From Candidatus Enterococcus courvalinii (lineage in GTDB: Bacteria; Bacillota; Bacilli; Lactobacillales; Enterococcaceae), in assembly GCF_017315945.1 (NCBI RefSeq), contig NZ_JAFLWI010000008.1, forward strand, positions 1-64,000: a stretch of DNA of 64,000 nt. Reading direction: 5' to 3'. Made by a program: the position numbers and the translations under genes. The notes beneath the pieces were generated by a model that had not been told where the DNA came from, did not search any database, and saw nothing but the letters and a program-made list of their open reading frames with translations. Of this stretch, positions 765-64,000 are shown in pieces (position 1 is the stretch's first letter; each line of letters opens with the position of its first letter).

Positions 765-838
765 GGCGGATGTGGCGAAGTGGTTAACGCACCGGATTGT
801 GGCTCCGGCACTCGTGGGTTCGATTCCCATCATTCGCC
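765..838 (+). tRNA. tRNA-His (GTG), copy 1
   Basis: Extra G(-1) at 765 opposite C838, the tRNA-His identity pair. Acceptor gcggatg pairs with cattcgc. Anticodon GTG at 799-801. A second copy lies at 1188-1261. Confidence 0.95.
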
Positions 839-848
839 CTTTTTTTAT

Positions 849-920
849 TGGGGTATAGCCAAGCGGTAAGGCAAGGGACTTTGACTCCCTCATGCGTTGG
901 TTCGAATCCAGCTACCCCAG
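849..920 (+). tRNA. tRNA-Gln (TTG), copy 1
   Basis: Acceptor tggggta pairs with tacccca. Anticodon TTG at 881-883. A repeat copy lies at 1270-1341. Confidence 0.95.
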
Positions 921-954
921 TTCTATAAATTTTATAGATTGATAATCGTATAAT

Positions 955-1025
<71 letters not shown>

Positions 1026-1044
1026 TAGTACAATTTATCGACAT

Positions 1045-1129
1045 GCCGGCGTGGCGGAATTGGCAGACGCGCTGGACTCAAAATCCAGTGCCCGTTAAGG
1101 GCGTGCCGGTTCGACCCCGGCCGCCGGTA
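1045..1129 (+). tRNA. tRNA-Leu (CAA), copy 1
   Basis: Class II tRNA. Acceptor gccggcg pairs with cgccggt (a G-U closing pair). Anticodon CAA at 1079-1081. Variable arm cccgttaaggg. Confidence 0.95.
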
Positions 1130-1132
1130 TTA

Positions 1133-1158
1133 CTAAGGTGTTTTCATCTTAGTTTTTT
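1133..1158 (+). terminator. Rho-independent terminator inside the tRNA cluster
   Basis: Stem ctaaggtg (1133-1140) pairs with catcttag (1145-1152, one G-U) with a TTTT loop and six T. It separates the first 12 tRNAs from the duplicated His-Gln-Leu block, so read-through or a separate promoter would be needed for the last three tRNAs. Confidence 0.65.
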
Positions 1159-1187
1159 ATTGGGTAATTAAATAACATATGTATGAT

Positions 1188-1261
1188 GGCGGGTGTGGCG
1201 AAGTGGTTAACGCACCGGATTGTGGCTCCGGCACTCGTGGGTTCGATTCCCACCATTCGCC
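1188..1261 (+). tRNA. tRNA-His (GTG), copy 2
   Basis: Near-identical to 765-838. It differs at acceptor position 5 (G instead of A, giving a G-U pair) and in the last T-stem base. G(-1) at 1188 pairs with C1261. Anticodon GTG at 1222-1224. Confidence 0.95.
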
Positions 1262-1269
1262 CTTTTTAT

Positions 1270-1341
1270 TGGGGTATAGCCAAGCGGTAAGGCAAGGGAC
1301 TTTGACTCCCTCATGCGTTGGTTCGAATCCAGCTACCCCAG
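1270..1341 (+). tRNA. tRNA-Gln (TTG), copy 2
   Basis: I see no difference from copy 1 at 849-920. Acceptor tggggta pairs with tacccca. Confidence 0.95.
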
Positions 1342-1365
1342 TTGAATTAAATTAAGTTTCACTAT

Positions 1366-1449
1366 GCCGGCGTGGCGGAATTGGCAGACGCGCTGGACTC
1401 AAAATCCAGTGACCGCGAGGTCGTGCCGGTTCGACCCCGGCCGCCGGTA
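1366..1449 (+). tRNA. tRNA-Leu (CAA), copy 2
   Basis: Same body as copy 1 (1045-1129) but with a different variable arm (gaccgcgaggtc instead of cccgttaaggg), so the two copies have diverged only there. Anticodon CAA at 1400-1402. Confidence 0.95.
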
Positions 1450-1456
1450 TCAATGA

Positions 1457-55383: not shown

Positions 55384-55659
55384 ATGGCAAACAAAGCAGA
55401 ATTAATCGAAAAAGTTGCTTCAGCTACTGATTTAACTAAAAAAGACGCAACTGCAGCTGTAGACGCTGTATTTTCAACTATTCAAGATGCTTTAGCTAAC
55501 GGCGAAAAAGTTCAATTAATCGGTTTTGGTAACTTCGAAGTTCGCGAACGCGCAGCTCGCAAAGGTCGTAATCCACAAACTGGTGAAGAAATCGAAATCC
55601 CAGCTAGCAAAGTACCTGCATTCAAACCAGGTAAAGCATTGAAAGACGCAGTTAAATAA
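55384..55659 (+). CDS. hup: DNA-binding protein HU
   Basis: A 91-aa [22 protein letters not shown], core [19 protein letters not shown] and arm [19 protein letters not shown]. Bends and packages DNA as a dimer. ATG 55384 follows GAGGAGGTGA. It is the last housekeeping gene before the tail-only phage locus. Confidence 0.97.
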
Positions 55660-55791: not shown

Positions 55792-56136
55792 TTATTTCAG
55801 ATGACACTCCCAACCTAACCCCAAATTAAATTCTTCTAGCACACTTGTGTAATTGAATTGCCCATCATTTTCTTGAATCAAATAATTGATCATCGAAGTA
55901 TTCGCTTCGTTTTCCATTTTTGAGTGGAAGACAGGATTGCTATATAATGCATTGAATTCTGAATGGTTTAGTGCATGATAAAGTTCATGAAGAATCACTT
56001 GTTTTTGCTTTTCTTCTGATTGATTTTGATTGATGACCATTAGATTCAAGTCATCAAAATAATAGCCTCTTTTTTCTAATTCCATCACGACTAGCTCAAT
56101 TCCATGACTAGCGAGTAGCTCCTTTACTTTTTCCAT
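55792..56136 (-). CDS. ImmA/IrrE-like metalloprotease
   Basis: 114 aa with the zinc-protease motif HELYHALNH (about residues 50-58) of the ImmA/IrrE (DUF955) family. In ICEBs1 and phages such proteases cleave the neighbouring repressor after DNA damage and so trigger expression. ATG 56136 follows GGAGT. It begins 13 bases after the repressor stop, as one operon. A role as anti-repressor here is inferred. Confidence 0.85.
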   Translation of the reverse strand: MEKVKELLASHGIELVVMELEKRGYYFDDLNLMVINQNQSEEKQKQVILHELYHALNHSEFNALYSNPVFHSKMENEANTSMINYLIQENDGQFNYTSVLEEFNLGLGWECHLK

Positions 56137-56148
56137 AAAAAAGACTCC

Positions 56149-56484
56149 TTACTTACTCATTCGCCCTTCTAAAAATGCACGAATGGCCTCTCTGTCATTG
56201 TCCGTCATCGGTTTTCCATCAAAGCTTTTCACATTGTCTAAGATTTTATTGAGATCCTCAGGTATCGTTTGTTTGGTGCCCAAAGAAGGTGTATCTGTTC
56301 GTCCAAGTAAATAATCTGTTGAAACGTGAAAGTATTCTGCGACTTTTTCAAGAGTTTCCGCTTTTGGACTACTTGTCCGCCACTGATAAATCACATTTTT
56401 TGACAGCCCAATATCTTCTGCAAGCTTATTTAAGCTGATTCCTTGTTTTTTTGAAAGATCCGAAACTCTTTCGTATAAACTCAT
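56149..56484 (-). CDS. XRE-family (cI-like) repressor
   Basis: 111 aa. N-terminal helix-turn-helix (LSKKQGISLNKLAEDIGLSKNVIYQWRTSS, about 9-40) and a 'VAEYFHVSTDYLLGRTD' segment typical of phage-type XRE repressors, then a short C-terminal tail. No self-cleavage (S24) domain, so inactivation probably depends on the partner protease. ATG 56484 follows AAGGAG. Likely binds the AT-rich operator region at 56485-56744. Confidence 0.88.
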   Translation of the reverse strand: MSLYERVSDLSKKQGISLNKLAEDIGLSKNVIYQWRTSSPKAETLEKVAEYFHVSTDYLLGRTDTPSLGTKQTIPEDLNKILDNVKSFDGKPMTDNDREAIRAFLEGRMSK

Positions 56485-56520
56485 TATAAAAACTCCTTTT
56501 TATATTTTTTTATAAAAATA

Positions 56521-56601
56521 TTGAAAATTATAAAGTAATGGGATAGTATTATTTATAGATTATACATACAAAAACAAAGTGAACAAGAAGTGTTGTTTTT
56601 G
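56521..56601. promoter_or_regulatory. Divergent control region: opposing promoters and inverted repeat
   Basis: Leftward repressor promoter: -35 TTGTTC (56581-56586), 16-bp spacer, -10 TATAAT (56559-56564). Rightward candidate: -35 TTGAAA (56521-56526), 17-bp spacer, -10 TAGTAT (56544-56549). The inverted repeat CAAAAACAA (56569-56577) / TTGTTTTTG (56593-56601) covers the leftward promoter and could be the operator. The rest of 56485-56744 is AT-rich. Confidence 0.5.
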
Positions 56602-56744
56602 TTACTTTTATTTTATAAAACTTTATGATTGAAGTCAATGTAAGTTTAGATTATTCAGTTAATTATATTTTTTTATGAAGATAGTAAGAGAATGATGTCA
56701 ACAAAATATTTTACCTATATAAAATTAGTTAGGAGTGGAGCATT

Positions 56745-57152
56745 TTGCGAAAATCAACATTTAATTATATTAAGGATATTTTATCCGATTATTATCAAAC
56801 AGATGCGTATATTAAACAAAGAGAAGAAGAATTACGCCATCCATTTATAGAAGCCGATTTAAATAACTCTATTCGTGGACAAGGAAACCATAGCATAGCG
56901 ACTGAAAGGATGGCCATCACCATTGCAATGGATCGTCGACTTTGGAATTTAGAAAGAAACCGTGATGTAGTGAAAGATTGTTTGGTGCGCGCGGATGAAA
57001 ATACGAGAGAAATCATCGAAAAACTCTATTTACAAAAAAATGCAACAGTCAATTTATTGGGAATGAGTCAGCGTTTGTTTATTAGTAAGAGTAAGGCTTA
57101 CGAACTAAGAAATGAATTTTTTGAAGCTGTTGCAGATGAGCTAGGTTTGTAA
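56745..57152 (+). CDS. ArpU-family phage late-gene transcription activator
   Basis: A 135-aa ArpU-type protein, with the family pattern of a helical N-terminus and a C-terminal sigma-like helix-turn-helix (NATVNLLGMSQRLFISKSKAYELRNEFFEAVADEL). In Gram-positive phages ArpU proteins switch on late (structural/lysis) genes. The start is TTG 56745 with GGAG about 9 bases upstream. Directly followed, after 254 bp, by the tail genes, its probable target. Confidence 0.85.
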   Translation: MRKSTFNYIKDILSDYYQTDAYIKQREEELRHPFIEADLNNSIRGQGNHSIATERMAITIAMDRRLWNLERNRDVVKDCLVRADENTREIIEKLYLQKNATVNLLGMSQRLFISKSKAYELRNEFFEAVADELGL

Positions 57153-57272
57153 CTCTGGAAAAACTCAGGAATTTTTTTCGTAGTCAACAGGCTAAAATAA
57201 TATCATCAAGAAAATCAACATTTCAGAATGAACTAACTTGCTTCTTTAAAAATGAAGAAAACTAAATTAGAA

Positions 57273-57301
57273 TTGAAAAATTTTCTTGAAGTTATTACAA
57301 G
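57273..57301 (+). promoter_or_regulatory. Candidate late promoter of the tail operon
   Basis: -35 TTGAAA (57273-57278), 17-bp spacer, weak -10 TACAAG (57296-57301), in the 254-bp gap between arpU-like and major tail genes. A weak -10 would suit an activator-dependent promoter. Confidence 0.4.
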
Positions 57302-57406
57302 GTGGTGGTTTCTACTTAGATCAACGTTTTTTGTTTCAAAAAATCTTCAAATAAGATAGTCAAAAACAGCTCTATTTTGTTTGAACCAAAAACAGGAGGA
57401 AGAAAA

Positions 57407-57910
57407 ATGGAAGCATTAAAAGGAATCGATGTTATTTTGCTTTATCGTTTATTAAGTAAATCAAGTGAAGGGCCCGCATGGAAAATGGCGTTTCAAACAG
57501 AACATGAAAATGGCTTAACTCGTGAGTCAGAAGCAACTGTGACTAAGGATGGAAATGTTCATACTTTGAGTCCCGTTGAATATGATTTCTCTGCAACTTC
57601 GATTGTTGCCAAAGGAGATACACATGTTGACGAGATGAAAAAAGCATTGTTGGACGGCGAAATTGTTGAAATTTGGGAAATCAACAAAGCCGAAAATGGA
57701 GTTGGTGAAGACGCAGATAAATATAAAGCAACCTATTATCAAGCTTATGTTTCAGAATTTACACCCAATGCGACAGCAGAAGACAATGTGGAACTAAGCT
57801 TAGCTTTTGCTGTTAACGGTGTTGGTCAAGAAGGATATGCAACGTTATCAGAAGACCAAGCTAAAGTGATTCAGTATACATTCAAGGACACTGTTTCAGA
57901 AACAGTTTAA
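57407..57910 (+). CDS. Phage major tail (tube) protein, TP901-1 type
   Basis: A 167-aa tail tube subunit of the TP901-1 major-tail family. Pattern MEALKGIDVILLYRLL at the N-terminus, EATVTKDGNVHTLSPVEYDFSA, KKALLDGEIVEIWEIN, and YKATYYQAYVSEFTPNA. It polymerises around the tape measure to form the tube. ATG 57407 has AGGAGG 7 bases upstream. First structural gene, with a hairpin after it that may set its excess over later proteins. Confidence 0.9.
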   Translation: MEALKGIDVILLYRLLSKSSEGPAWKMAFQTEHENGLTRESEATVTKDGNVHTLSPVEYDFSATSIVAKGDTHVDEMKKALLDGEIVEIWEINKAENGVGEDADKYKATYYQAYVSEFTPNATAEDNVELSLAFAVNGVGQEGYATLSEDQAKVIQYTFKDTVSETV

Positions 57911-57917
57911 ACCAATG

Positions 57918-57956
57918 ATGGATTGTGTAGTTTTATGACGAACACAATCCATTTTT
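57918..57956 (+). terminator. Intra-operon terminator after the major tail gene
   Basis: Perfect 11-bp stem atggattgtgt (57918-57928) / acacaatccat (57942-57952), followed by five T. Partial termination here would make far more major tail mRNA than downstream mRNA. Confidence 0.75.
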
Positions 57957-57998
57957 ATCAAAAATAATTGATTTTCAGGATTAAAAAGGAGAGAAAAA

Positions 57999-58346
57999 AT
58001 GAATTTAGTGATTAAAGAAAAGGACTACCAATTTGTATTTGGTTATGGCTTTATCAAGGAAATGAATCGTCGTTATTCGGTAACAGAAAATGGCTTAACT
58101 TTGAAAATGGGGCTAGAAAGTATTTTATCGAATTTCTTTAATAAAGATGTTGAAACGTTAGTTGAGATGTTAAAGGTTGCAAACAGTACAGAGACACCAA
58201 AAGTAAGTGAAGATGACTTAGCCAATTATATTGTGGAAAATGGGGCTGAGGTATTGTTTGAAGAACTCTTGGAAGAACTAAAAAAGTCGGAATTTACGAA
58301 GAACAAGACCCTACAGTTGTTAGAACGCATTCAAGCAAACCAATAA
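57999..58346 (+). CDS. Tail assembly chaperone (gpG-like)
   Basis: 115 aa. N-terminal MNLVIKEKDYQFVFGYGFIKEMNR is typical of Gram-positive phage tail chaperones that bind the tape measure protein. ATG 57999 follows AAAGGAG. A canonical slippery site near its end (58280-58286) allows extension into the next frame to make the GT form. Confidence 0.85.
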   Translation: MNLVIKEKDYQFVFGYGFIKEMNRRYSVTENGLTLKMGLESILSNFFNKDVETLVEMLKVANSTETPKVSEDDLANYIVENGAEVLFEELLEELKKSEFTKNKTLQLLERIQANQ

Positions 58347-58684
58347 ATTTCACTGAGGTATACCAGCAAATGCAGCTGAACTGTTTGCGTTATTTAGAAA
58401 TGAACGATTTTCTTGAAATTGATCGAATGACGATTTCTGAATATCAGTTACGGCAAAAAGCATATCAGCTAAGACAACTGGATCAGGAATATTTTCTACA
58501 TCTTTCAGCATGGAAAAACTATGAAGTTCAAGCACAGAGTAAAAAAGGAAAAAAACAAGTACCGGTTTATCCAACGTTTCAGTCATTCTTTGATTACGAA
58601 AAACTACAAGAAAAAATTGTTGGCTATTTACCACAAGGTGAAAATCAAGAATTCTTGGATCTGGTCAAAAAAGCAAATACTTAA
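57999..58684 (+). CDS. Tail assembly chaperone frameshift product (gpGT-like)
   Basis: A -1 shift at A AAA AAG (58280-58286) joins residues 1-96 of the G protein to a 132-aa T extension, giving about 228 aa. The -1 frame has no stop from 58262 to 58684, and its conceptual sequence across the junction runs smoothly (VGIYEEQDPTVV ... INFTEVYQQMQLN). An in-frame ATG at 58370 could start a free T protein but has no Shine-Dalgarno. In lambda-like tails the G/GT ratio is set by this shift and is needed for assembly. Confidence 0.8.
58280..58286 (+). other. -1 ribosomal frameshift slippery site
   Basis: Heptamer A AAA AAG in register with the G frame (codons CTA AAA AAG), the classic X XXY YYZ bacterial slip sequence, 60 bases before the zero-frame stop. 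I did not find a strong downstream pseudoknot by eye. Confidence 0.8.
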
Positions 58685-58699
58685 GAAAGGAGGGTATTT

Positions 58700-60325
58700 A
58701 TGGGAGACTATACAGCGGAAAGTATTCTTGCAGCTTTTAGTGAAGGGGCTGTGGGAGTAATGAATACAGGCATTGAGAAGGCAAGCAAAGCAATCAAATC
58801 AATGACAAGTAATCTTTCTGGTTTTGACTCACTTAATTCAGTTATTAACACAGTCACTGATTCATTAAAGGAAACAGTCAAGCAATTTGAACAGCTTACT
58901 AGTAAAGCTTCAACAATGAATCTAGCTGGTTCCTCTTCAAAGGAAGTAGAAAGTTTTCAAGACTTGATTGGAAAAATTTCTGAGGTGACGAGTGCTGTTG
59001 ATAATGGGATACAAGGGGCTGGTTTTGGTGAAACGATGGCGGGTTTTGATGATGTTTTAACCACCTATTCTACAGTTGTTGGAATCCAGGATAAGATTGC
59101 TGGTTTAGGTACTGCATATCAAGCTTGGACAAAGGCTACGGAAGGTGCAACGATTGCACAGAAATTATTAACGACTGCAATGAATGCGAACTGGATAGCA
59201 ATTATTATCACTGCTGTCGTGACTTTAGTTTCAACATTGATCTATTTATGGAATACCAACGAAACCTTTCGTCAAGCAATCATTACTGCTTGGACAGCAA
59301 TCCAGTCATTTCTGGAGCCAGTCATCACAACGATTACGACTTTTGTTCAGACCATGTTTACGATGCTTTTAACTTGGTGGCAAACAAATCAGGAGACAAT
59401 TATGAATGTTGTCAGTACGGTGTGGACAAGTATTCAAAATGTTTTTACTATTGTTTTGGCTGCAATTCAACTAGTTGTTCAAGTTGTTTTGAGTCAAATT
59501 CAAGCATATTGGACTGCATGGAGTACGGTGGTACAAGTAATCGTTCAAACAGCATGGACAATTATCTCCAATGTATTCAAAACAGTGTTATCTGTCATTT
59601 TGTCAGTAGTTAGCGGTGTCTTTAATCAAATTCAAAACACAATTAACTTTATTATGGGCTTCATTTCGGGCATTATCCAAACGGTATTAGCGTTGATCAA
59701 AGGAGATTGGGATGGCGTATTAGCGGGAATTCAGTCAATTGTCAGTACTTTTGGTGATTTTGTAACATCTTCTTTTTCAACCTTTATGGCGACAGCAAAA
59801 GAGATTGTCAATGGCATTATTGAGGGAATTCGAGATTTGTTTAGTTCATTGTCAGAAATCAATCTTTTAGAAGCAGGAAAAGCGATTATTGATGGCTTTA
59901 TCAATGGCTTAAAAGCAGCCTGGGAAGCAGGAAAAGAATTTGTTAGTGGCATTGCAGATTGGATCATTAAACATAAGGGGCCAGTTAGTTATGATAGTAA
60001 AATTTTGATTCCTGCAGGGCAAGCAATGATGTCAGGACTAAATCAAGGCTTAACAAATGGCTTTTACACTGTTCAAAAAAACATTGGGACAATGGCAGAC
60101 CGTTTAACCGATGGGTTTCAACCAGTTCGCGACTTAGATTTAGAAGCGACATTAACTCGAGCAAATGGTCAGATGAATACGCAAGTTGAACATCGGATAA
60201 ATTCTACAGATTCCACAAAGCCAGCAGTATTTACGATTACATTAGGCAAACAAAATTTTAGAGCTTTCGTGGATGATATCTCACAAGCTTTAGGTGAAGG
60301 GACAGAATTGAATTTAGAATTTTAG
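58700..60325 (+). CDS. Phage tape measure protein
   Basis: 541 aa. A helical N-terminus, several long hydrophobic, Trp/Val/Ile-rich repeats in the middle (about 165-345, e.g. WTSIQNVFTIVLAAIQL, VVSGVFNQIQNTINFIMGFI), and a C-terminal segment (GPVSYDSKILIPAGQAMMSGL) common to siphophage tape measures. Sets tail length. By the rule of thumb of about 1.5 angstrom per residue, the tail would be near 80 nm, short for a siphophage. ATG 58700 follows AAGGAGG. Confidence 0.93.
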   Translation: MGDYTAESILAAFSEGAVGVMNTGIEKASKAIKSMTSNLSGFDSLNSVINTVTDSLKETVKQFEQLTSKASTMNLAGSSSKEVESFQDLIGKISEVTSAVDNGIQGAGFGETMAGFDDVLTTYSTVVGIQDKIAGLGTAYQAWTKATEGATIAQKLLTTAMNANWIAIIITAVVTLVSTLIYLWNTNETFRQAIITAWTAIQSFLEPVITTITTFVQTMFTMLLTWWQTNQETIMNVVSTVWTSIQNVFTIVLAAIQLVVQVVLSQIQAYWTAWSTVVQVIVQTAWTIISNVFKTVLSVILSVVSGVFNQIQNTINFIMGFISGIIQTVLALIKGDWDGVLAGIQSIVSTFGDFVTSSFSTFMATAKEIVNGIIEGIRDLFSSLSEINLLEAGKAIIDGFINGLKAAWEAGKEFVSGIADWIIKHKGPVSYDSKILIPAGQAMMSGLNQGLTNGFYTVQKNIGTMADRLTDGFQPVRDLDLEATLTRANGQMNTQVEHRINSTDSTKPAVFTITLGKQNFRAFVDDISQALGEGTELNLEF

Positions 60326-60334
60326 GAGGGAACA

Positions 60335-61123
60335 ATGGAAGAATGGAAGAACAAATTATATTCATTTAAAGACACTGTGATGAGTTGGCAGATGTTCGAA
60401 CAATTTCTGCCAACTTCTGCTATGAGCTACGATGGAGTTTATTTGGAAGAGCTGATTGATGGGTATCAGACACTGAAGGTTGAGGGGAGGGAAATGCTTT
60501 CGACAGAAATCGAACAACAAGCCATTCAAGTGGGGGCAATTGTTATGAACCAGACACTACCAGTACGAGAATTAAAAATCACGTATAAACTTGAGGATCG
60601 TAATCCAGAAACCTTGCAATTTAAGTTTAAAACTTTGTTGAATCACTTGTATCGTTCAAAGGATGTTGAAATTCGTTTTTATGATGAGCTAGATTACCAT
60701 TATTATGGCCGCTATGCCTCTGCTGAAACAGTCAGTGGAGAATCTAATTCTGTTATTTCCAGTTTTACGATTCTTTGTGTTGATCCATTAAAGTATACGA
60801 AAGAATTTATGACAGACGGCTATGTCGGCGTACCAACTTTTTTCCCGGTGACACCTCGTAAAATCGAAGCTGTATTGTCAAGTAATCAATCAATTAAAAT
60901 CACTAATGGAAAACAAACGATTAGCATCAGTGATGCACCAATTCAAATCGGTGATAAGATTGTTTTTCATTTTGCTGAGCAACGTGTACTAGTAAATGGA
61001 GCAGATTGGACACCGATAATTGATCTAGACAGTGATTTTGAAAATTTTTGTTTGGAACAGGGGCAAGAGATAAAAAGCAGTAATGGGACACTAAAAATTT
61101 ATTATAAGGGGGCGACTATTTGA
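60335..61123 (+). CDS. Distal tail protein (Dit-like)
   Basis: A 262-aa protein of the phage distal-tail family (KLYSFKDTVMSWQMFEQFLPTS; EGREMLSTEIEQQAIQVG; RELKITYKLEDRNPETL). Hexamers of such proteins form the hub joining tube and tip. ATG 60335 follows AGGAGGG, 9 bases after the tape measure stop. Its TGA overlaps the start of the next gene by 4 bases. Confidence 0.88.
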   Translation: MEEWKNKLYSFKDTVMSWQMFEQFLPTSAMSYDGVYLEELIDGYQTLKVEGREMLSTEIEQQAIQVGAIVMNQTLPVRELKITYKLEDRNPETLQFKFKTLLNHLYRSKDVEIRFYDELDYHYYGRYASAETVSGESNSVISSFTILCVDPLKYTKEFMTDGYVGVPTFFPVTPRKIEAVLSSNQSIKITNGKQTISISDAPIQIGDKIVFHFAEQRVLVNGADWTPIIDLDSDFENFCLEQGQEIKSSNGTLKIYYKGATI

Positions 61124-64000
61124 ATTCATCGGTTTATTTTTTTGATAACTTTCAGCATTTGATCAAACGAAAAGATGCGAAGAATTTAATTGAAGTTTCT
61201 CAAGAAAAAGAAATTACTGCGGAGAAAAAAGAATTATTGAACGACGTACTTTATGTTACAACGAAATTCGATGAGACCATTACAAGCGCGCAATTCATGG
61301 CGGTTCGTGAAAGCGAATCGTCTTTTTCATTGTATCGAATCACGAAAATTAGTGATCCAAACGAAACACTTGAATTTACTGGGATTGGCTTTGCGTCTGA
61401 TGAACTAGACTCGTATATCATCAATCAGATAGTAGCAAATAAGCAATCCATTGATTCTTTACTTAATGAGCTATTGGCTTTTACTAATGGTAATTGGCGA
61501 GTGGGCTACGTCGAACCAGGGCTATCCAAGATTACAACAACTTTTGATTATGTATCTGTACGAGAAGCACTAAAACAATTGCAAACTTTTGGAATGGAGT
61601 TTTTGTTTTGTTGCACACTAGATTCTGATGGGATCAAAGATAAGTGGATCGAAGTATATCTGCAGATCGGCACAATTTCTAATAAGCGATTTACTTATGG
61701 CAGTAAGGCATTAACTGTTATCAAAGAAGTCGATCAAAGTGCCATTTATACTTCAATCATCGGGCGTGGAAAAGGTGAAAATGTTGGAAGTGGTCAAGGA
61801 AAAAGGCTAGATTTTACCAATATTGAATGGAAAAAATCCAAGGGAGATCCACTTGATAAACCAAAAGGACAACCTTTTCTTGAAAACGTTGAAGCAACGC
61901 AAAAGTACGGCGTTCCACAAAAAAATGGAAAGATGTACAAACGAGAAAAAGTTGTTGTTTTTGATGATATTGATGACCCACAAGAATTGTTACAGAATAC
62001 CTATCTGACTTTACTAGATTCAGCTAGACCGTTAGCTCAATTTCAAGCAGAAGTAACGGAGGGTGACGTCATAGGAAATACTGTAACTATTCACAGATAT
62101 GACAAAGGATATCATTATGCCACACGGATTTATAAAACAAAAATCAATCGTTTAACCGGAAAAGCAACTGTCGAATTAGGTGATAATCTAACAAAAGATA
62201 CAAGAAAACAGTCAGCAAAAGTTGCAACTAATTTGTCTGAATTGGAATCAACCAAAATGACTTTTTATCAATCAACTGAAATTGGAAAATATCAAGATGA
62301 TATTATGCGTGGTGCTGGTGAAAATGGTGGTTCTGTTTATCAGGTGAATGGAATTGAAGCAGGTGTTAGCAATAGTCGGGAAGTATATGAAACGGTCTAT
62401 ATGGATGGGGAAAATATTCCTAACTCGAAGTATTTTATGATTGAAAATAATTCTGGAATTTCATTTAAGCAATGTAAGCAAGGTCAATGGAAAACAATCA
62501 AAGATGTTCATAATGGTCCGTCAACGACTGCATGGTCCTTAGATGGTCAATTCAATGCAAATTTTATTCGTACAGGTATTTTGAACGGGGTACTTGTGGA
62601 AGGCGTTATGTTGAAATCGGCTCATCGAAATATGACTTACCAAGCTGTTTTAGATAGAGGATCATTAGAATTTCAATACTACAAAGAAACACCAGAAGAT
62701 TTAAATTATACGAATGAAAATTGGCAAAACGCAGTTGAGGGAGAAGTTGTAGGTAGAATCGAAGGAACTTTGGGAGCAGCTGGTAAACCAAATGGATTTG
62801 CAGTCATCCAGTATCCAGGACAGATTTTTTCCATTAATTCTGCTTATGAAAATGGTAGTACGGGAGCTGTTTTCCAGATTCCTAAAGAATCTAGTGGTGA
62901 AAAGCGGAAGTACAAGCTTTTGGGAGAAGGTACGTTTAGCAATGGAAAAATTATTTTTGAAGACGATGTGACATTTGAGGGAAAGGTACAAGTCAATGGA
63001 CGACTGGATGCGAAAGAACTCTATATCAATGGTGTAAAAATTGACACAAATGGTGGCGGAAGTTCTGGTGGAAATAACGGAAGCTGGAATGGACAATATC
63101 CATCAGAAGTCACTTCTGATCGTGACAAACGTTATTGGCAGATTTGGGCAATGGCTATTAGCGCTGGGTTTACGAAGCAAGCTGCTGCTGCACTATTGGG
63201 TAATGCACAAGGTGAATCAGATGCCAACCCAGTTGCAGATGAAGGCAACGGTGTACCAGGCTATGGTTATGGTGTATGGCAATGGACAGATAATACAGGT
63301 GTGAATAGTGGGCGTGTGTATATGATTAATCTCATGACACAAGCAGGAGTCACAGAAGATCCAGACACAATCACAGCACAGTTTAAGTTGTTAATGTGGC
63401 ATTCATTAAATGGGCAATGGATTGCAACTAGCGCTTATCCACTCACATGGACACAATTTATGAATTTAACTGATATCAATACAGCCGCACAAGCATTTGT
63501 GACCAATTTTGAAAGACCACGCGATCCACATCCGGAAAGAAGTGTATGGGCGCAAGAATGGTATGACAAATTCGTAAATTTGGATATTCCAAAAAATGAA
63601 GGATACACCAAACCTATCGCGAGTCCAATCACCGTTACAAGTGAAATGGGATGGCGCATTTCGCCAATCACTGGACAACAAGAGTTTCATAATGGAATTG
63701 ATTTGGTGAATGGAAATCCGAACACCCCGATTTTTGCAGCAGGCGATGGTGAAGTCATCACTGCGGGGGCAGAATATTTTGATTGGTACGGGAATTACAC
63801 GGTTATAAAACATACGGATGGAATGTTTACTGGATACGCACATCAAAGTCGAGTAGATGTCTCTAAAGGGCAAACAGTGGTTGCTGGTCAGCAAATTGGC
63901 TTGATGGGAACGACTGGACCATCCACAGGTGAGCATCTGCATTTCCAATTTATGGATGAGTTTTACCCATCATCGAGTAATCATTTTCATAATCCAAGAA
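61120..64000 (+). CDS. Tail-tip protein (Tal) with tail-lysozyme and M23 peptidase domains, partial
   Basis: At least 960 aa, open to the window end. The start is TTG 61120 with AAGGGGG 8 bases upstream, overlapping the Dit stop. Residues about 1-370: phage tail endopeptidase/hub domain. About 370-640: beta-rich spacer, then a GGGSSGGNNGS hinge (near 647). About 670-825: phage tail lysozyme-like domain (WQIWAMAISAGFTKQAAAALLGNAQGESDANP, split as WQIWAMAISAGF and LLGNAQGESD, the Glu being the likely catalyst). About 840-960: M23 metallopeptidase (HNGID and HLHF zinc motifs). Such tips degrade peptidoglycan locally. Confidence 0.88.
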   Translation, partial: MNSSVYFFDNFQHLIKRKDAKNLIEVSQEKEITAEKKELLNDVLYVTTKFDETITSAQFMAVRESESSFSLYRITKISDPNETLEFTGIGFASDELDSYIINQIVANKQSIDSLLNELLAFTNGNWRVGYVEPGLSKITTTFDYVSVREALKQLQTFGMEFLFCCTLDSDGIKDKWIEVYLQIGTISNKRFTYGSKALTVIKEVDQSAIYTSIIGRGKGENVGSGQGKRLDFTNIEWKKSKGDPLDKPKGQPFLENVEATQKYGVPQKNGKMYKREKVVVFDDIDDPQELLQNTYLTLLDSARPLAQFQAEVTEGDVIGNTVTIHRYDKGYHYATRIYKTKINRLTGKATVELGDNLTKDTRKQSAKVATNLSELESTKMTFYQSTEIGKYQDDIMRGAGENGGSVYQVNGIEAGVSNSREVYETVYMDGENIPNSKYFMIENNSGISFKQCKQGQWKTIKDVHNGPSTTAWSLDGQFNANFIRTGILNGVLVEGVMLKSAHRNMTYQAVLDRGSLEFQYYKETPEDLNYTNENWQNAVEGEVVGRIEGTLGAAGKPNGFAVIQYPGQIFSINSAYENGSTGAVFQIPKESSGEKRKYKLLGEGTFSNGKIIFEDDVTFEGKVQVNGRLDAKELYINGVKIDTNGGGSSGGNNGSWNGQYPSEVTSDRDKRYWQIWAMAISAGFTKQAAAALLGNAQGESDANPVADEGNGVPGYGYGVWQWTDNTGVNSGRVYMINLMTQAGVTEDPDTITAQFKLLMWHSLNGQWIATSAYPLTWTQFMNLTDINTAAQAFVTNFERPRDPHPERSVWAQEWYDKFVNLDIPKNEGYTKPIASPITVTSEMGWRISPITGQQEFHNGIDLVNGNPNTPIFAAGDGEVITAGAEYFDWYGNYTVIKHTDGMFTGYAHQSRVDVSKGQTVVAGQQIGLMGTTGPSTGEHLHFQFMDEFYPSSSNHFHNPR

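What the first reader, a model, noticed from the sequence alone, without database searches (positions are those of the whole stretch)
55792..64000. Tail-only phage locus: candidate non-contractile tailocin of an Enterococcus
Seen: repressor plus ImmA-like protease, ArpU activator, then directly major tail protein, G/GT chaperones, tape measure, Dit and Tal. There is no integrase, replication, terminase, portal or capsid gene between control and tail genes. Known: F-type tailocins such as Listeria monocin are domesticated siphophage tails with this content, used to kill related bacteria. Inference: this locus makes a killing particle, induced when the repressor is cleared. Intact genes, good ribosome sites, an in-frame slippery site and a stoichiometry hairpin argue against simple decay.
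Basis: partly seen in the sequence, partly recalled or inferred. Interest (0 to 1): 0.9.

Follow-up and report, generated by a model that had tools for sequence, protein, structure and literature searches.

The report
Headless phage-tail weapon of an Enterococcus
A relative of Enterococcus thailandicus keeps, at a fixed place beside a housekeeping gene, an intact set of genes for a phage tail without a head, with its own switch and cell-bursting genes; related strains share the tail body but carry different tips, as expected of a particle used to kill neighbouring bacteria.

Summary
Confirmed and extended. At hup, window 55792-64000 continuing to about 71220 on the same contig, lies a complete element: repressor, ImmA-like protease, RinA/ArpU-type activator, tail tube, G/GT chaperones with a -1 slippery site, short tape measure, Dit, Tal (lysozyme + M23), two BppU fibres ending in a metallophosphoesterase and a GDPD, holin, amidase, lysozyme. 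No integrase, terminase, portal, capsid, connector or tail-terminator gene was found. E. thailandicus DSM 21767 has it at the same site; tail-body dN/dS is 0.010-0.073 (flanking AroB-like gene 0.070). Another strain matches DSM 21767 at 99.5% DNA identity over 7.9 kb, then the two differ from inside Tal onward. Of 80 IMG/VR loci with a related tail tube, 79 carry at least the gpU-like gene upstream; the exception is this element. Against: close relative G010 kept regulators and lysis genes but lost the tail, and 12 of 15 same-genus genomes lack the element. Best reading: an F-type (non-contractile) tailocin with exchangeable tips. Particle and killing are untested. By-product: 17 genomes of another genus carry a smaller headless-tail operon in which no lysis gene was found.

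The parts
55384..55659 (+). hup (HU protein), chromosomal left neighbour of the element
   Evidence: Pfam Bac_DNA_binding 1.4e-38; der, hup and the AroB-like gene lie together in 15 of 15 same-genus genomes
55792..56136 (-). ImmA-like metalloprotease, 114 aa, presumed to destroy the repressor
   Evidence: Peptidase_M78 6.2e-10, PHROG 87 4.8e-20
56149..56484 (-). phage-type repressor, 111 aa
   Evidence: HTH_3 1.1e-8, PHROG 8 1.7e-25
56745..57152 (+). RinA/ArpU-type late activator, 135 aa, TTG start
   Evidence: TIGR01636 RinA 1.1e-49; PHROG 36 2.5e-20
57153..57406 (+). conserved leader before the tail operon, presumed late promoter; most of it kept even in G010, which lost the tail genes
   Evidence: alignment A2, blastn window vs G010; promoter function not tested
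57407..57910 (+). tail tube (major tail) protein, 167 aa
   Evidence: TIGR02126 3.8e-30, PHROG 238 3.5e-58, PDB 9m7c Gp11 2.3e-63; dN/dS 0.013
57911..57998 (+). hairpin between tail tube and chaperone genes, presumed to lower downstream expression
   Evidence: RNA fold -19.1 kcal/mol, hairpins also predicted in relatives
57999..58346 (+). tail assembly chaperone gpG, 115 aa
   Evidence: Phage_TAC_12 1.1e-20; dN/dS 0.010
58280..58286 (+). -1 slippery heptamer A AAA AAG for the gpG-T fusion
   Evidence: frame check of window and 6 relatives: window, E. thailandicus, L071 and L077 have this heptamer, B1578 and TP901-1 another, G069 none found
58370..58684 (+). T part of the tail assembly chaperone, 104 aa as separate ORF
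   Evidence: PHROG 441 positions 127-235, 4.1e-40
58700..60325 (+). short tape measure protein, 541 aa
   Evidence: PHROG 58 3e-74; 541 aa also in E. thailandicus and L092; 940 aa in phage B1578, 937 aa in TP901-1
60335..61123 (+). Dit, distal tail protein, 262 aa
   Evidence: SPP1_Dit, Sipho_tail; PDB 9m8o Gp15 7.7e-69 and 4v96 ORF46 2e-59
61120..64000 (+). Tal, 965 aa, ends at contig position 64017: Prophage_tail + Phage_lysozyme2 + Peptidase_M23. Further right on the same contig (beyond the window): BppU-metallophosphoesterase fibre 64030-66156, BppU-GDPD fibre 66164-68875, holin 68949-69350, Amidase_2 endolysin 69350-70324, Phage_lysozyme2 lysin 70330-71220
   Evidence: Tal matches PDB 9m7n Gp16 1.2e-206

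Best explanation
The locus encodes an F-type (non-contractile) tailocin derived from a TP901-1-like enterococcal prophage. Shown by sequence: the gene set of a siphophage tail with wall-cutting tip and enzyme-bearing fibres, its own repressor/protease/activator set and lysis cassette; no head, connector or tail-terminator gene found; a chromosomal site shared by two species; purifying selection on the tail body; different tip cassettes on a nearly identical body. Inferred: stress clears the repressor through the ImmA-like protease; the RinA/ArpU-type protein switches on the tail operon; a tail of roughly 70-80 nm set by the 541-aa tape measure assembles; holin and endolysins burst the producer; the particle binds wall polymers of related bacteria, its phosphodiesterases cut teichoic-acid-like polymers, Tal cuts peptidoglycan, and the membrane is breached. 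Producer kin are spared by lacking the receptor.
For: Gene content and boundaries. Same site and intact tail operon in E. thailandicus DSM 21767. dN/dS window vs E. thailandicus: tail tube 0.013, gpG 0.010, gpT 0.050, tape measure 0.073, Dit 0.036, activator 0.030, protease 0.064, repressor 0.069, holin 0.066; flanking AroB-like gene 0.070 and lipoprotein-like gene 0.136; dS of tube to Dit 0.25-0.60 against 0.32 and 0.50 for those flanks, so the locus has diverged with its chromosome. Sharp break inside Tal between two strains after 7936 bp at 99.5% identity, followed by different Tal ends and fibres. 79 of 80 IMG/VR loci with a related tail tube (80 kept of 93 found) have at least the gpU-like gene upstream; the exception is this element. 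In the Dit tree the window group lies in a fork supported 100/99 with B1578-like phages and the E. mundtii prophage; the tail-tube tree agrees more weakly (88/77).
Against: No particle, induction or killing has been shown. G010, the closest relative examined at the site (der 99.5% identical), has no tail gene there while keeping immA, repressor, activator, holin and amidase. 12 of 15 same-genus genomes lack the element. The tail-terminator (gpU-like) gene is missing, so how tube growth stops is unexplained. dN/dS is higher for Tal (0.29, over a stretch that includes the exchanged end), the GDPD fibre (0.105) and the amidase (0.130). No LexA-like box of the patterns tried was found between repressor and tail-tube gene. 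No immunity gene was recognised.
Confidence: 0.78

Rival explanations
1. A decaying prophage remnant that happens to have lost head, replication and integrase genes and is on its way out; intact reading frames only mean that the loss is recent.
For: The same site in G010 has lost the whole tail block. Prophage programs found no intact prophage in one E. thailandicus genome, three incomplete and one questionable in another report (passages of PMC5341189 and PMC4956438).
Against: Two species share the headless state at the same site, so the losses most simply predate their split, yet tail genes stay intact with dN/dS 0.010-0.073 from tube to Dit. What is missing is one functional block (head, packaging, connectors, terminator, integrase, replication) while tail, switch and lysis genes remain. 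Tips differ on a nearly identical body.
Confidence: 0.1
2. A domesticated tail kept for a use other than killing rivals, for example programmed lysis that releases DNA or enzymes, or wall remodelling, with the tail as a helper.
For: G010 keeps open frames for the switch plus holin and amidase without tail, as a lysis-only unit would; fibres carry phosphodiesterases rather than plain binding domains.
Against: In the window strain and E. thailandicus the tail body is under strong constraint and the tip varies, which fits a target-specific weapon better. BppU-GDPD tail proteins also occur in an enterococcal phage (phage 9183, passages of PMC10194240).
Confidence: 0.08
3. A tail store for satellites or tailless capsids that borrow tails from the chromosome.
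For: Tail set without head. That some phage satellites borrow helper tails is recalled, not from a call.
Against: The four genes directly before the tail tube in the nearest phage (head completion, adaptor, tail completion, gpU-like) have no match here, so the tail lacks its known docking parts; no match in the genome to two portal and two terminase families.
Confidence: 0.03

Closest known systems
Listeria monocin (ftb cluster, F-type tailocin)
   Same: Headless siphophage-type tail gene cluster ending in a holin-lysin cassette; a single monocin region in all strains examined (review PMC7076858, passages read).
   Different: Monocin has 18 genes and rather weak homology to phage A118 (same passages); this locus is TP901-1-type, nested with enterococcal prophages, and its fibres carry GDPD and metallophosphoesterase domains. 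Monocin sequences were not compared here.
Enterococcus phage vB_ElaS_B1578 (PQ283533) and related enterococcal prophages; TP901-1
   Same: Tail tube 81%, Dit 66% identical to B1578; the order tube, chaperones, tape measure, Dit, Tal, fibres, holin, amidase is the same.
   Different: B1578 has terminase, portal, capsid and connector/terminator genes and a 940-aa tape measure; here none of those was found and the tape measure has 541 aa.
E. faecalis core prophage element pp2 (V583 ef1276-ef1293)
   Same: Tabled with repressor, tail and lysis functions but no integrase, portal, head or packaging; no excision detected, called a remnant (passages of PMC3675006; column order read from the flattened table).
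   Different: The table also gives it a replication function. Its sequence was not compared here. L182 may be of that kind, not proven.
F-pyocin and rhizoviticin (F-type tailocins of Gram-negatives)
   Same: Same principle, a non-contractile headless tail used as a weapon (passages of PMC10811719).
   Different: Gram-negative producers and targets, other phage ancestors (recalled in part). Sequences not compared here.

Membership tests
F-type (non-contractile) tailocin | non-contractile tail gene set incl. tube, chaperones, tape measure, hub, tip | tested here: met
F-type (non-contractile) tailocin | no capsid, portal, terminase genes in the element | tested here: met
   genome negative for PF05133, PF04466, PF04860, PF03354; other head families not sought genome-wide
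F-type (non-contractile) tailocin | no sheath or contractile baseplate | tested here: met
   no such family named among the Pfam/PHROG rows shown for the element's genes
F-type (non-contractile) tailocin | own regulation and lysis cassette | tested here: met
   repressor, ImmA-like, RinA/ArpU-type, holin, two endolysins
F-type (non-contractile) tailocin | fixed site, vertical descent, intact under selection | tested here: met
   shared with E. thailandicus at hup, dN/dS 0.010-0.073 from tube to Dit; but tail lost in G010
F-type (non-contractile) tailocin | variable receptor-binding/tip module on conserved body | tested here: met
F-type (non-contractile) tailocin | headless tails seen after induction | not testable with these tools
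   needs electron microscopy
F-type (non-contractile) tailocin | kills related bacteria without replicating | not testable with these tools
   needs killing assay
Listeria monocin lineage | common descent with the ftb cluster | not tested
   monocin sequence not fetched; the trees hold no monocin row
functional temperate prophage (TP901-1-like) | integrase, terminase, portal, capsid | tested here: not met
   none found between hup and the AroB-like gene
E. faecalis pp2 element | same genes as ef1276-ef1293 | not tested
   only literature passages seen

The most novel reading that the evidence does not exclude
Enterococcaceae have repeatedly turned TP901-1-type tails into headless machines: the hup tailocin of the E. 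thailandicus group, a complete tailocin in G069, an L182-like element, and, in 17 genomes of genus g13, a minimal tail operon next to rplU in which neither a phage-type regulator nor a lysis gene was found. The last would be a phage-tail particle made and perhaps used without a lysis program of its own, held for the age of a genus.
Probability: 0.5. Interest if true: 0.78.

Novelty: new member of a known kind. Interest (0 to 1): 0.62.

Why it matters
F-type tailocins are described as rare, with F-pyocin, monocin and rhizoviticin named (passages of PMC10811719). No description of one in Enterococcus turned up in nine searches of the open library (listings seen, 20 of 57 rows and 15 of 54; subscription papers and preprints are not held). 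If it kills, it gives enterococci a protein weapon whose tips carry phosphodiesterases and peptidoglycan cutters, a natural series of different tips on a nearly unchanged body, and a close relative (G010) without the tail as a ready comparison. It also shows that 'incomplete prophage' calls can hide intact headless-tail loci.

Tried and rejected
Head genes elsewhere: two portal and two terminase families were sought in the genome, none found; other head families were not sought. LexA-like boxes in the control region: the patterns tried gave no match in window, E. thailandicus or G010, so SOS control stays inference. That all headless loci are one lineage is not supported: in the Dit tree (35 rows) the window group, G069 and g13 lie apart with phages between; in the tail-tube tree (36 rows) G069 and the G095 prophage fall in one weakly supported fork with the window group and B1578 (88/77). 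The group test that gives 'one tailocin clade' ignores the phages lying between. That the locus is common in the genus was rejected (3 of 15 genomes hold any of it). PHROG names 'minor head protein' for Tal and fibres were rejected as misnomers. The small gene before the tail tube in g13 (L071) and L182 has a weak PHROG match to a head scaffolding family (3.1e-6 and 4.5e-7); I take it for a coiled-coil resemblance, but it is a result against 'no head gene' there. Structure prediction was not used. ArpU is kept only as a loose label; NCBIfam says RinA. Two papers with tailocin and Enterococcus terms were opened: neither passage set describes an enterococcal tailocin (PMC5609240, PMC12944560).

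Weak points of the counts: dN/dS uses an experimental Biopython routine (NG86) on pairwise alignments. The g13 head and lysis negatives rest on BLAST with B1578 and window genes plus reading of L071, L073, L076 and L072; in 2 of 17 g13 loci rplU was not reached in the stretch fetched, in L070 the BppU gene lies in two frames, and L085 shows no small coiled-coil gene. In one search, 33 of 105 genomes matched the Dit profile: 20 were fetched, three (G000, G007, G012) were read in other calls, and 10 (mostly weaker or other Dit types, incl. G020 and G085) were not examined.
Full report
What is there. The window is positions 1-64000 of a 163,178-base contig. Between hup (55384-55659) and an AroB-like gene (from 72754; label by eye, no Pfam match) lies one phage-derived element. 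Leftward genes: ImmA-like protease and repressor. Rightward: RinA/ArpU-type activator, a 254-base leader, tail tube, gpG, gpT, tape measure, Dit, Tal, two fibres, holin, amidase, lysozyme. All are open frames. The element ends at about 71220; two minus-strand genes that look like lipoproteins and chromosomal genes follow. No integrase, replication, terminase, portal, capsid, connector or tail-terminator gene was found by family scans of the listed genes or by BLAST with the head and connector genes of phage B1578. Tal ends with a Phage_lysozyme2 and an M23 domain; the fibres begin with BppU and end with a calcineurin-like phosphoesterase and a GDPD. Read by eye, the metal and catalytic motifs of M23, GDPD and phosphoesterase look present (sequence; motifs recalled). 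Solved relatives: tube, Dit and Tal match Gp11, Gp15 and Gp16 of entries 9m7c, 9m8o and 9m7n, Dit also ORF46 and the first fibre ORF48 in 4v96; the second fibre matches GDPD enzymes.

Not chance, not debris. The chaperone pair keeps a -1 slippery heptamer, A AAA AAG, with the T frame open behind it, here, in E. thailandicus and in the two g13 loci checked; B1578 and TP901-1 have another heptamer and none was found in G069. Window against E. thailandicus DSM 21767, dN/dS is 0.010-0.073 from tube to Dit. Flanking genes give 0.070 (AroB-like) and 0.136 (lipoprotein-like). Synonymous divergence from tube to Dit (0.25-0.60) spans that of those flanks (0.32, 0.50); hup itself is almost unchanged (0.016). 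So the headless locus most likely sat at this site before the two species parted and has been kept since. Tal (0.29 including the exchanged end), GDPD fibre (0.105) and amidase (0.130) are less constrained.

Distribution. In 15 of 15 same-genus genomes, der, hup and the AroB-like gene are found together. The window genome and E. thailandicus (G012, named through) have the element; no match to the second lysin was seen in E. thailandicus. G010 has immA, repressor, activator, holin and amidase without any tail gene; its sequence follows the window's into the leader before the tail tube and resumes at the holin. The other 12 showed none of these genes there (BLAST, E up to 1e-3); two of them hold a membrane-protein-like gene instead. 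E. mundtii (G007) has a prophage with related tail, capsid (Phage_cap_E), scaffold and connector genes elsewhere.

Tip exchange. IMG/VR record L092 is another strain with this element. Its DNA is 99.5% identical to DSM 21767 over 7936 bases, from left of the protease gene to Tal residue about 636, then similarity stops. DSM 21767 continues with a lysozyme and a CHAP domain, a different BppU-phosphoesterase fibre, a 251-aa fibre and a BppU-GDPD fibre. L092 continues with a Tal end like the window's (Tal 91% to the window), a BppU fibre of 376 aa without phosphoesterase match, a 700-codon fibre frame and a separate GDPD gene. Window against DSM 21767 breaks at the same place in Tal. A nearly unchanged body with different tips in what looks like one species is the strongest sign of use against varying targets.

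Against phages. Of 80 IMG/VR loci kept (of 93 found) by the search for the window's tail tube, 79 have at least the gpU-like gene upstream, most also portal, scaffold and adaptor genes; the one without is L092. Nearest phages are enterococcal ones such as B1578, with a 940-aa tape measure. In the Dit tree the window group shares a fork (100/99) with B1578-like phages and the E. mundtii prophage; in the tube tree the corresponding fork is weak (88/77), lacks the E. mundtii row and also holds G069 and a G095 prophage. So it is most likely a captured tail of that kind.

How it likely works. Switch: repressor with ImmA-like protease, then RinA/ArpU-type activator on the conserved leader (inferred from families). 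Body: tube length by the 541-aa tape measure; scaling to TP901-1's 937 aa and its tail of about 118 nm (recalled) gives about 70 nm. Release: holin and two endolysins. Attack: fibres bind and cut wall polymers, Tal opens peptidoglycan, the membrane is breached (inferred from known tailocins; passages). Missing terminator and connectors mean no head can be joined in the known way; how the tube end is capped is open.

Known or new. It works like monocin as described and fits every F-type tailocin feature testable here; particle and killing are untested. By sequence it is TP901-1-type. No comparison with monocin sequence was made. Nine library searches listed no paper on an Enterococcus tailocin (listings, not all rows); two papers with the terms were checked in passages. 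E. thailandicus genome papers report no intact prophage, or incomplete and questionable ones, or one of 19.7 kb (passages). E. faecalis pp2 is tabled with repressor, replication, tail and lysis but no head, portal or packaging and called a remnant (passages); it may deserve the same second look.

A wider pattern. The Dit profile matched 33 of 105 family genomes. Of 20 fetched, 17 belong to genus g13. These 17 carry tube, gpG, gpT, tape measure (666-923 aa), Dit, Tal, BppU (in two frames in L070) and three small fibres, with a small coiled-coil-like gene before the tube in 16, beside an RpiR-type gene (17 of 17) and rplU-ysxB-rpmA (15 of 17 reached). No BLAST match to head, connector, repressor, activator or lysis genes of B1578 or the window lies in the operon; one repressor-like match in L076 lies in an adjoining insertion. 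The small gene has a weak PHROG match to a head scaffold family. In L071, the one scanned, Tal has Phage_lysozyme2 and a CHAP match just under its cut-off. The last fibre (38-85% to L071) and tape measure (51-87%) vary most. In L072 and L073 a MarR-like and two ABC-transporter-like genes (by eye) lie between fibres and rplU, no lysis gene. Eight short IMG/VR records are this operon; a ninth, L182, has repressor, ImmA-like, two RinA/ArpU-like genes, tail and a Phage_holin_4_1 gene, with no head gene seen except the same weak scaffold match. G069 has a complete tailocin-like locus with its own regulators, holin and two lysins, tube 70% and Dit 52% to the window. The other two of the 20, G019 and G095, carry connector or head genes; G095's Dit match holds a stop.

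Verdict.

Noticed in passing
L069-L085 (17 genomes of genus g13), e.g. L071:4519-13610: Minimal headless-tail operon between an RpiR-type gene and rplU; no phage regulator, holin or endolysin found by BLAST with the genes used; body conserved, last fibre and tape measure variable. How it is released is unknown.
   Followed up: partly
L068:2757-16704 (G069): Complete tailocin-like locus in another genus of the family: repressor, protease-like gene, activator, tail with 550-aa tape measure, collagen-like fibre, holin, two lysins, no head gene found.
   Followed up: partly
L182 (IMG/VR, 13.4 kb) and L184: Headless tail element with repressor, ImmA-like gene, two RinA/ArpU-like genes and holin; may be of the E. 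faecalis pp2 kind (guess, not tested).
   Followed up: partly
L054:2114-5201 (G010): Same hup site keeps immA, repressor, activator, leader, holin and amidase, all open, but no tail gene: a possible lysis-only unit or a recent deletion. Its leader carries a near-perfect inverted repeat where the window has only a partial one.
   Followed up: partly
phage records PQ554527 and PQ283533: The record named Acinetobacter phage D2SVT gives the same identity, E-value and score as Enterococcus phage B1578 in two searches; its host label may be wrong.
   Followed up: no
L060:16129-17880, L061:14783-16525: Two relatives without the element carry a large membrane-protein-like gene between hup and the AroB-like gene; L061 also a small integrase-like fragment (both by eye). 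The site may accept insertions repeatedly.
   Followed up: no
window 766-1451: tRNA cluster with His, Gln and Leu genes present twice in the same order, a Cys gene between Gln and Leu in the first set.
   Followed up: no
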